Positions 1 through 34,032 of a DNA stretch of 34,032 nucleotides are shown piece after piece (within the stretch, counting starts at the first letter, position 1; each line of letters begins with the position of its first letter). The DNA comes from Ruminococcus sp. Its GTDB lineage: Bacteria; Bacillota; Clostridia; Oscillospirales; Ruminococcaceae. The position numbers and the translations under genes are program-made. The notes under the pieces are model-generated. The model ran no database searches and was not told the origin of the DNA. It saw nothing but the letters and a program-made list of their open reading frames with translations. The stretch is taken from NCBI GenBank assembly GCA_015066715.1, contig SVNU01000012.1:1-34032 (forward strand), in the 5' to 3' direction.

Positions 1-126
1 CGGTGGGCTGTTTTTCAAGAGGGGACGCTTTGCAAGAAAAAGCGTCCCCTTACTATCTGCCTTCGTAATATAAATCTGCCGATTTAATCGGCACGAAAAT
101 CAATATTTAGGTTTTTCTACAGTCTG
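1..126 (+). mobile_element. Partial copy (3' part) of an interspersed TIR-bounded MITE-like element, cut by the window start
   Basis: Aligns without gaps to 7584-7709 (about 12 mismatches in 126 by eye). Contains the GGGGACGCTTT/AAAGCGTCCCC hairpin and TGCCGATTTAATCGGCA palindrome. Ends TTTTTCTACAGTCTG exactly at the base of the hairpin at 127. Confidence 0.8.
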
Positions 127-154
127 AGAGCAGCATTTTAACTAATGCTGCTCT
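127..154 (+). terminator. Terminator-like hairpin abutting repeat copy 1
   Basis: AGAGCAGCATT (127-137), loop ttaact, AATGCTGCTCT (144-154), followed by TCTAATTTTT. Confidence 0.6.
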
Positions 155-6703: not shown

Positions 6704-7366
6704 ATGAATAACAAATTTGAAAGGTTACTGTCTATAGCTATAGATAATATATCCTATGACGATACTGTTTTTATTCGCTCATGCTTAACTGACAGTGGTT
6801 ATGAAATACGCAGTACAGCCGCTTCTATGATACTTAACTCACCATATTCAGATGAAAACGATATAGAGCTTTTATATAAAATGTGTGATGATGAAGAAGC
6901 ACTGGTCAGGATTGAAGTGTATGATGCACTCTCCTGTTGTTCAGAAAAATATGTTGCCGACAAGATCAAGTCGGCAATAATATCTGAGGATAATTGTGTA
7001 TCACGAAACTATGCGATAATTTGCTGGACAGATGTTACAGCAAAAATTACGCAGGATTATGCACAGGAAATTGAATTCATAAAATCAATTCAGAAAAGCA
7101 AGCTGATTTGCACTGATCATTGCAGATTAAGCTGTTATTATGCACTTTACAGATTTGGCGAAGCCGGAAGCCTTGAAAGTATGCTTGATTTTTTGAACAG
7201 TAATGATTATCATATTCAATGTGCAGTTGTAAATTTTCTTAGCTGTTCTGTCAAATCACAAGATATTCCAACTGTAAATAGTGAGTTGGAAAGAGTTTTG
7301 AAAACAAGTCCTGTCAGAGCAGTAGCTGAGACTATTAAGAATTTTCTCAATAAATATTGCATATAA
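6704..7366 (+). CDS. HEAT-repeat-like protein in the phosphorelay operon
   Basis: Repeated alpha-helical pattern (SCLTDSGYEIRSTAASMIL..., CDDEEALVRIEVYDALS..., LNSNDYHIQCAVVNFLS...). Starts 7 nt after the RR stop. Confidence 0.65.
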   Translation: MNNKFERLLSIAIDNISYDDTVFIRSCLTDSGYEIRSTAASMILNSPYSDENDIELLYKMCDDEEALVRIEVYDALSCCSEKYVADKIKSAIISEDNCVSRNYAIICWTDVTAKITQDYAQEIEFIKSIQKSKLICTDHCRLSCYYALYRFGEAGSLESMLDFLNSNDYHIQCAVVNFLSCSVKSQDIPTVNSELERVLKTSPVRAVAETIKNFLNKYCI

Positions 7367-7367
7367 A

Positions 7368-7393
7368 AAACCGTCAGTTTTATCTGACGGTTT
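7368..7393. terminator. Bidirectional terminator hairpin, left copy of a 26-bp direct repeat
   Basis: AAACCGTCAG-TTTTAT-CTGACGGTTT; identical to 7710-7735; immediately followed by CAG of the element. Confidence 0.85.
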
Positions 7394-7709
7394 CAGTTTG
7401 TCGAAAAAGTCGTTTTTGAAATTTCAAACTAAAAGTTTTTTGGTCCAGCAATTTTTTCAAAAATGCTGGCGGAATCTACTTTGCATGCCTTCAGCACTCG
7501 GCAGAGCCTTTGGTCGCTCACCGCAGTGAGCGAAAATTCCATGTCGAAGGCGCATTTACGAGGGGTGAATTGACAAAACAGCCCAGTGGGCTGTTTTTCA
7601 AGAGGGGACGCTTTGCAAGAAAAAGCGTCCCCTTACTATCTTTCCTCGTTATTTAAATCTGCCGATTTAATCGGCACAATAATCATAAATGAGGTTTTTC
7701 TACAGTCTG
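7394..7709 (+). mobile_element. Complete 316-bp non-coding TIR-bounded element (MITE-like), inserted between two copies of a terminator hairpin
   Basis: Ends CAGTTTGTCGAAAAA and (reverse complement) CAGACTGTAGAAAAA, 12/15 identical. Flanked by 26-bp perfect direct repeats. 3' part recurs at 1-126 and, inverted, at 33886-34032. Confidence 0.82.
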
Positions 7710-7735
7710 AAACCGTCAGTTTTATCTGACGGTTT
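7710..7735. terminator. Bidirectional terminator hairpin, right copy of the 26-bp direct repeat (serves hisE on the - strand)
   Basis: AAACCGTCAGTTTTATCTGACGGTTT followed by TTG; 18 bp beyond the hisE stop. Confidence 0.85.
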
Positions 7736-7753
7736 TTGTTATGATTAAATAAA

Positions 7754-8092
7754 TCATGTATTCTTATCAACCTGATGGAAAGTCTTGAGATTACCGATTT
7801 TTTCATTTCTTTCATCAAGTACCTTTTCAATTTCAGACCAGTCAAGTCCCTGATTTGCACAAAGAACCATGATATGATAAAGAAGGTCATTGATTTCGTT
7901 CTTTAATTCGTCATTGTCATTGTTTTTTGCGGCAATAACAGTTTCTGTTGCTTCTTCACCGATTTTCTTGCAGATTTTATCTACACCCTTTTCAAAAAGG
8001 TAGCAAGTGTAGGAATTTTCCTGTGCTGTACCGTTTTCAAAGGCTGCCTTTCTTTGCTTTATAACTTCAAAAATTTCTTCATAAACTGACAT
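7754..8092 (-). CDS. hisE: Phosphoribosyl-ATP pyrophosphatase
   Basis: MSVYEEIFEVIKQRK...KIGEEATETVIAAKN...NEINDLLYHIMVL. Start trimmed from the ORF to MSVYEE. Confidence 0.93.
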   Translation of the reverse strand: MSVYEEIFEVIKQRKAAFENGTAQENSYTCYLFEKGVDKICKKIGEEATETVIAAKNNDNDELKNEINDLLYHIMVLCANQGLDWSEIEKVLDERNEKIGNLKTFHQVDKNT

Positions 8093-33863: not shown

Positions 33864-33885
33864 AGAGGATGATTTTTCATCCTCT
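33864..33885 (+). terminator. Terminator-like hairpin after the DUF58 gene, abutting repeat copy 3
   Basis: AGAGGATGA-TTTT-TCATCCTCT, immediately followed by CAGCCTGTAGAAAAA. Confidence 0.7.
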
Positions 33886-34032
33886 CAGCCTGTAGAAAAA
33901 ACTCGATATTTAATTTTGTGCCGATTAAATCGGCAGATTTAGATTGCGAATGAAGATAGTAAGGGGACGCTTTTTCTTGCAAAGCGTCCCCTCTTGAAAA
34001 ACAGCCCACCGGGCTGTTTTTCAATTCACCCC
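33886..34032 (-). mobile_element. Partial copy of the MITE-like element in inverted orientation, cut by the window end
   Basis: Reverse complement aligns to 7562-7709 with a single 1-nt length difference. Same hairpins; terminal CAGCCTGTAGAAAAA adjoins the 33864-33885 hairpin. Confidence 0.8.

What the first reader, a model, noticed from the sequence alone, without database searches (positions are those of the whole stretch)
7368..7735. 316-bp MITE-like element flanked by a perfect 26-bp duplication of an entire terminator hairpin
The sequence AAACCGTCAGTTTTATCTGACGGTTT, a complete intrinsic terminator stem-loop, occurs at 7368-7393 and again at 7710-7735. Between the copies lies a 316-bp non-coding segment with imperfect terminal inverted repeats (CAGTTTGTCGAAAAA / CAGACTGTAGAAAAA, 12/15). 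The simplest reading is one bidirectional terminator between the convergent HEAT-protein and hisE genes, into which an element inserted with a 26-bp target-site duplication equal to the hairpin. The insertion leaves a working terminator on each side, so it should be transcriptionally neutral. TSDs this long are rare; IS1202-like elements (about 24-29 bp) are the precedent I know of. A TSD that coincides exactly with a terminator hairpin is, to my knowledge, not a standard described feature.
Basis: partly seen in the sequence, partly recalled or inferred. Interest (0 to 1): 0.82.

Follow-up and report, generated by a model that had tools for sequence, protein, structure and literature searches.

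The report
MITE that duplicates its target terminator
A short jumping-DNA element, present in about 50 copies in this gut bacterium, lands exactly on the hairpin that ends a gene's transcript and copies the whole hairpin to its other side; its larger transposase-carrying relatives in many bacteria do the same, apparently by recognising the hairpin's shape rather than its sequence.

Summary
The 316-bp segment 7394-7709 is one of about 50 copies of a non-autonomous element in this genome. All 50 right ends abut a hairpin (49 of 50 at a score reached by 2.5% of control positions). Of 24 copies readable at both ends, 20 are flanked by direct repeats of a whole hairpin (19-30 bp), each copy with a different hairpin. 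So the target-site duplication (TSD) is the target hairpin. The mobilising family is IS1182, not IS1202: IS1182-family elements with the same ends (CAGNCTGTCGAAAAAG) carry hairpin TSDs of 20-39 bp in other Clostridia, and relatives do so in Bacilli, Fusobacteria and Gammaproteobacteria. Two strict empty sites (Listeria plasmids, Streptococcus prophages; 700 of 700 bp identical) show one hairpin before insertion and two after, with nothing lost. Duplications are dyad-symmetric about the hairpin, ending 1-3 A:T pairs outside its G:C stem. Best mechanism: a DDE transposase recognising an extruded hairpin or cruciform. Terminator targeting by IS1182 elements was already reported (ISCbo5, IS1272/TnSha1), but IS1272 deletes the hairpin. 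I found no earlier demonstration of exact whole-hairpin duplication, nor a MITE family using it. No transposase was found in this draft genome.

The parts
7368..7393 (.). Left copy of the 26-bp target hairpin (TSD), originally the terminator between the HEAT-repeat gene and hisE
   Evidence: Exact repeat of 7710-7735; 10-bp stem, z = -6.4
7394..7709 (+). 316-bp non-autonomous IS1182-type MITE
   Evidence: About 50 right ends and dozens of copies in the genome; ends match IS1182-family elements; no coding gene
7394..7408 (+). Left terminal repeat CAGTTTGTCGAAAAA
   Evidence: Same as IS1182-family left ends CAGNCTGTCGAAAAAG
7695..7709 (-). Right terminal repeat (reverse complement CAGACTGTAGAAAAA)
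   Evidence: Pattern TTTTTCTACARNCTG found 50 times in the genome, control 1
7710..7735 (.). Right copy of the target hairpin (TSD); keeps the original + strand T-tail
   Evidence: only this copy scores as a + strand terminator
7500..7636 (+). Conserved structured core of the MITE (several hairpins), found in all 11 genomes of the genus
   Evidence: 47 predicted pairs over 16 sequences, 18 with compensatory changes
6704..7366 (+). HEAT-repeat protein gene ending 1 bp before the left hairpin copy
   Evidence: ORF; PF13646 HEAT_2, E = 2.3e-6
7754..8092 (-). hisE (phosphoribosyl-ATP pyrophosphatase), convergent gene
   Evidence: ORF; homologues in 9 of the 10 other genomes of the genus
1..126 (+). 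Right part of another MITE copy, at the contig edge
   Evidence: Right end at 112-126; sequence
127..154 (.). Hairpin AGAGCAGCATTTTAACTAATGCTGCTCT directly after that copy
33864..33885 (.). Hairpin AGAGGATGATTTTTCATCCTCT at the right end of a third copy
33886..34032 (-). Right part of a third MITE copy, at the other contig edge
   Evidence: Right end at 33886-33900; sequence

Best explanation
The segment is a MITE mobilised in trans by an IS1182-family DDE transposase that selects its target by DNA shape. SHOWN (by comparison of sequences): insertion turns one terminator hairpin into two identical copies, one on each side of the element, with nothing lost, and the duplicated stretch is symmetric about the hairpin's dyad and as long as the hairpin (19-39 bp). 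INFERRED: the transposase binds a hairpin or cruciform extruded from the palindrome (favoured by supercoiling), joins the element's 3' ends to the two hairpin feet, which are close in space although 19-39 bp apart along the duplex, and host gap repair unfolds and copies the single-stranded hairpin, leaving one on each side. Sequence appears to matter mainly as an A/T preference at the foot. CONSEQUENCE (inferred): insertions fall at gene ends and the outer tail of each hairpin copy survives, so they are nearly neutral and the family can reach about 50 copies.
For: Genome-wide: 50 of 50 right ends at hairpins (49 of 50 at score >=7 versus 2.5% of control); 20 of 24 two-ended MITE copies have one whole hairpin on both sides, 15 exact and 5 with one mismatch, lengths 19-30. 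Autonomous partners: 29 of 49 two-ended IS1182-family elements show direct repeats of 20-39 bp that are whole hairpins. Over both sets, 49 of 49 TSDs are centred on the best palindrome, 46 of 48 unique ones exactly dyad-symmetric, edges mostly 1-3 A:T pairs outside the outermost G:C pair. Transposase: NF033551 transpos_IS1182 above cut-off, plus PF05598, PF13751, PF01609. Same ends on a decayed IS1182 element in a sister species, G002. Strict empty sites: joined flanks carrying one hairpin match 700 of 700 bp in four Listeria plasmids and in phage Javan90, against occupied pLIS32 and Javan87. Same TSD type in Enterococcus, Cytobacillus, Peribacillus, Cetobacterium, Klebsiella and Providencia. 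Structure model pLDDT 84 with weak resemblance to DDE/RNase H-fold transposases and integrases. Duplication of a whole stem-loop from strand transfer at its 5' feet was drawn as a hypothetical pathway for IS1272 (PMC5678879).
Against: No transposase of this type was found in the window's own draft genome, so trans-mobilisation is inferred from shared ends and TSD type. Four of 24 MITE copies and 20 of 49 IS copies lack matching repeats; most carry two different hairpins, which recombination between copies or mis-joined assembly would explain, but this was not shown. One IS (L107/L209) has an 8-bp non-hairpin TSD beside a hairpin. No strict empty site was found for this particular locus, because the HEAT gene is not next to hisE in the relatives. 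The cruciform step is not observed; recognition through the terminator RNA is not excluded.
Confidence: 0.85

Rival explanations
1. Transcription-coupled targeting: the transposase is drawn to terminating RNA polymerase, an R-loop or the RNA hairpin, not to a DNA hairpin.
For: All 20 MITE target hairpins with a TSD have a T-rich tail on at least one outer side, 12 of 20 on both.
Against: Six of 28 IS target hairpins have no T-rich tail on either side, and the duplicated stretch is symmetric about the hairpin with respect to both strands, which a one-directional transcription signal would not give by itself.
Confidence: 0.12
2. The hairpins belong to the element, which carries a hairpin at each end (for example an IS-borne terminator or attenuator).
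For: Terminators upstream of ISBma2-type transposases have been read as intrinsic IS elements (PMC2965389).
Against: Each copy has a different hairpin sequence, and the strict empty sites already hold one copy.
Confidence: 0.01
3. Random insertion with a fixed long stagger (IS1202-like), followed by selection that leaves only insertions at terminators.
For: IS1202-group elements make TSDs longer than 15 bp (PMC10132070); insertions in genes would be lost.
Against: TSD lengths run from 19 to 39 bp and follow hairpin size; 46 of 48 are exactly dyad-symmetric, which selection for being near a terminator cannot give. The transposase family is IS1182.
Confidence: 0.02

Closest known systems
ISCbo5 / ISBma2-type IS1182-family elements in Clostridium (PMC3098183)
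   Same: IS1182 family; all insertion sites except one composed of inverted repeats forming hairpins at gene ends, read as transcription stop signals
   Different: The main text does not state that the whole hairpin is the TSD or that its length follows the hairpin; autonomous IS, not a MITE. Its supplementary table of direct repeats was not readable here
IS1272 and TnSha1 (IS1182 family, Staphylococcus; PMC4923244, PMC5678879)
   Same: IS1182 family; targets are terminator or other hairpins without sequence consensus
   Different: The hairpin is replaced or partly deleted and there is no TSD; here it is duplicated intact. Whole stem-loop duplication appears there only as a hypothetical pathway (Fig. 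13b)
IS1202 group (PMC10132070)
   Same: Unusually long TSD
   Different: Different transposase; no hairpin rule seen in the passages read
Group IIC introns and IS200/IS605 elements (own knowledge)
   Same: Insertion next to terminator or other hairpins
   Different: No TSD; RNA-based or HUH single-strand chemistry, not DDE
Bacterial MITEs reviewed in PMC10969869 (Chunjie, QMITE, BOX, RUP)
   Same: Short, terminal repeats, many intergenic copies, TSD
   Different: None described in the passages read as having a TSD equal to a terminator hairpin; IS1182 is not mentioned in the review

Membership tests
MITE | Short, non-coding, multicopy, with terminal inverted repeats | tested here: met
   About 283-371 bp, 50 right ends, TIR 12 of 15, no gene
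MITE | TSD on insertion | tested here: met
   20 of 24 two-ended copies
MITE | Ends shared with an autonomous element | tested here: met
   CAGNCTGTCGAAAAAG ... TTTTTCTACAGNCTG on IS1182-family elements
MITE | Autonomous partner in the same genome (usual, not strictly required) | tested here: inconclusive
   None in the draft genome, but it is 83.5% complete and broken at repeats; a decayed one in sister species G002
IS1182 family (autonomous partners) | Transposase model NF033551 above cut-off | tested here: met
   389, 408 and 464 bits against a cut-off of 270
IS1182 family (autonomous partners) | DUF772 plus DDE_Tnp_1 / DDE_Tnp_1_6 domains | tested here: met
IS1182 family (autonomous partners) | Palindromic or hairpin targets (reported for some members) | tested here: met
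IS1272-type hairpin replacement | Target hairpin lost, no TSD | tested here: not met
   Hairpin kept and duplicated; empty sites with 700 of 700 bp
IS1202 family | IS1202-type transposase | tested here: not met
   Partners match the IS1182 model above cut-off; no model named IS1202 among the hits
Group IIC intron / IS200-IS605 | Insertion at a hairpin without TSD | tested here: not met
   Hairpin duplicated in both empty-site cases

The most novel reading that the evidence does not exclude
A large, widespread group of DDE transposases (IS1182 type) reads target structure instead of sequence. It recognises an extruded DNA hairpin or cruciform and performs strand transfer at its two feet, so the TSD has no fixed length and is the palindrome itself. 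Non-autonomous elements exploit this to spread through a genome's terminators.
Probability: 0.65. Interest if true: 0.78.

Novelty: new variant of a known kind. Interest (0 to 1): 0.64.

Why it matters
DDE transposases normally have a nearly fixed stagger, so TSD length is treated as a family trait. Here it is set by the target's hairpin (19-39 bp), which makes shape-directed targeting directly testable and offers a natural safe harbour (gene ends) for insertion. It also explains how about 50 copies can be carried, and it warns that hairpins flanking such elements, read elsewhere as IS-borne terminators or attenuators, may be duplicated host terminators. Genomes with these elements could serve as maps of sites where DNA hairpins form in vivo.

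Tried and rejected
IS1202 family as the source: rejected on transposase family and variable TSD length. Autonomous IS in the own genome: not found with PF13751, PF01609 or an eight-transposase profile; the assembly breaks inside these repeats. Strict empty site for this locus in the genus through hisE: HEAT is not conserved next to hisE; G001, G003 and G007 have hisE followed by a single, different hairpin with no insert. Rfam: only weak matches far below the gathering scores. Solved structures by sequence: nothing. Phage records with the MITE itself: none. ISEfa7 in Enterococcus and some other plasmid copies gave no clean TSD. Two reviews that may describe IS1182 direct repeats are not in the library.

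Full report
CHECK OF THE OBSERVATION. The hairpin folds with a 10-bp stem, z = -6.4. The insert has no plausible gene. It lies between a HEAT-repeat gene (PF13646) and the convergent hisE.

COPIES IN THE GENOME. The window is a whole contig (C81) of a 2.66-Mb, 192-contig draft. The insert has dozens of copies there, the best full-length ones 86-93% identical, and the right-end pattern TTTTTCTACARNCTG occurs 50 times against 1 for the reversed control. I read the surroundings of all 50 right ends. Each is followed at once by a hairpin: 49 of 50 reach score 7 and all reach 6, against 2.5% and 6.3% of 20,041 control positions. Where both ends lie within a contig with flanks (24 copies), 20 have the same hairpin on both sides, 15 exactly and 5 with one mismatch, 19 to 30 bp long, each locus with its own hairpin sequence. 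Three copies (L039, L050, L062) have two different or diverged hairpins and one (L068) has none on the left.

WHO MOVES IT. The ends led to a decayed IS1182-type transposase (PF13751, PF05598) in a sister species, G002, bounded by CAGTCTGTCGAAAAAG and TTTTTCTACAGGCTT and sitting at hairpins. A family-wide search gave IS1182-family elements of about 1.5 kb with the same type of ends and exact whole-hairpin repeats of 25, 29, 31 and 39 bp. A scan of named genomes gave 80 loci, mostly in Clostridia. Of 49 with both ends and flanks, 29 have direct repeats of 20-39 bp that are whole hairpins; most of the other 20 have a hairpin on both sides but two different ones. The transposases pass NCBI's IS1182 model well above its cut-off. 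None was found in the window's own genome, which is 83.5% complete and broken at these repeats, so the source of transposase is inferred.

GEOMETRY. Over 49 insertions (20 MITE, 29 IS) every TSD is centred on the best palindrome of the reconstructed site (median palindrome score 32.5; random windows 13.0, 95th percentile 21), and 46 of 48 unique ones are exactly dyad-symmetric. The edge usually falls 1-3 A:T pairs outside the outermost G:C pair; the first base of the TSD is A in 39 of 49 and the last is T in 44 of 49. TSD length correlates with palindrome length (r = 0.51 over all; 0.83 among the 39 sites whose G:C-closed stem ends within 4 nt of the edge, a subset chosen by that closeness and therefore biased upward).

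EMPTY SITES. Outside Clostridia the same TSD type occurs in a Listeria plasmid, Streptococcus phages, Peribacillus, Cetobacterium, Enterococcus, Cytobacillus, Klebsiella and Providencia; a distant Bradyrhizobium relative shows only 7 bp. For pLIS32 and phage Javan87 I joined the flanks leaving one hairpin. The joined sequence matches 700 of 700 bases, 100%, in four Listeria plasmids and in phage Javan90. One hairpin becomes two and nothing is lost. For the window's own locus there is no strict empty site; three genus relatives have hisE followed by a single, different hairpin and no insert.

MECHANISM. A fixed stagger cannot give TSDs of 19-39 bp that follow the hairpin. The simplest account is recognition of an extruded hairpin or cruciform, with the transposon's 3' ends joined to the two 5' feet and gap repair copying the hairpin. 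This is the pathway drawn, but not chosen, for IS1272 (PMC5678879). The predicted transposase structure (pLDDT 84) is only weakly similar to solved DDE/RNase H-fold enzymes, and no solved structure is related by sequence. Transcription-coupled targeting is the main rival; six of 28 IS target hairpins lack a T-rich tail on both sides.

EFFECT ON TRANSCRIPTION. The insertion is not simply 'a terminator on each side'. The inner flank of each hairpin copy is the element's CAG end, so the T-tract survives only on the outer sides (mean 5.2 and 5.8 T in 8 nt against 3.9 and 2.0, MITEs). The copy with an intact tail lies beyond the element for each converging transcript. In this window the scan recognises 7709-7736 and an internal hairpin at 7602-7634.

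KNOWN AND NEW. IS1182-family elements at terminator hairpins were reported in 2011 (ISCbo5, PMC3098183) and for IS1272/TnSha1 in 2016-2017, where the hairpin is lost and no TSD is made (PMC4923244; PMC5678879). A review cited there notes that some IS1182 members target palindromes, but it was not held. From memory, ISfinder lists direct repeats of up to about 60 bp for IS1182; this was not checked. What I did not find in print is the measured rule (whole-hairpin, dyad-symmetric, variable-length TSD with strict empty sites) or a MITE family using it. I therefore rate it a new variant of a known kind.

Noticed in passing
window 7500-7636 and loci L080-L097: The MITE interior is a multi-hairpin core with matches in all 11 genomes of the genus although ends and flanks diverge; 18 of 47 predicted pairs show compensatory changes over 16 sequences, and Rfam has no match near a gathering score. 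It may be a structured RNA or a selected DNA cargo.
   Followed up: partly
window 1-126 and 33886-34032: The contig begins and ends inside two further copies of the same MITE, each next to a hairpin; many of the 192 contigs break in this repeat.
   Followed up: partly
L060 (G000:C127:2883-3203): A second, much smaller element of about 80 bp with similar ends (TAGTTTGTCGAAAAAG ... TTTTTCTATAGTC) and its own inner hairpin sits next to a 316-type copy, sharing the hairpin AGGCGGTCATTGACCGCCT between them.
   Followed up: no
L137, L140, L145, L153, L158, L177, L208 and others: Many IS1182-family copies carry two different hairpins at their two ends; recombination between copies, deletion between neighbouring copies or mis-joined assembly are possible.
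   Followed up: no
L107 and L209: An IS1182-family copy with an 8-bp non-hairpin TSD (TAGCTCAA) beside a hairpin, which may show the default stagger when no hairpin is used.
   Followed up: no
PMC2965389: Terminators found upstream of ISBma2-type transposases were read as intrinsic IS attenuators; the present result suggests they may be duplicated target terminators.
   Followed up: no
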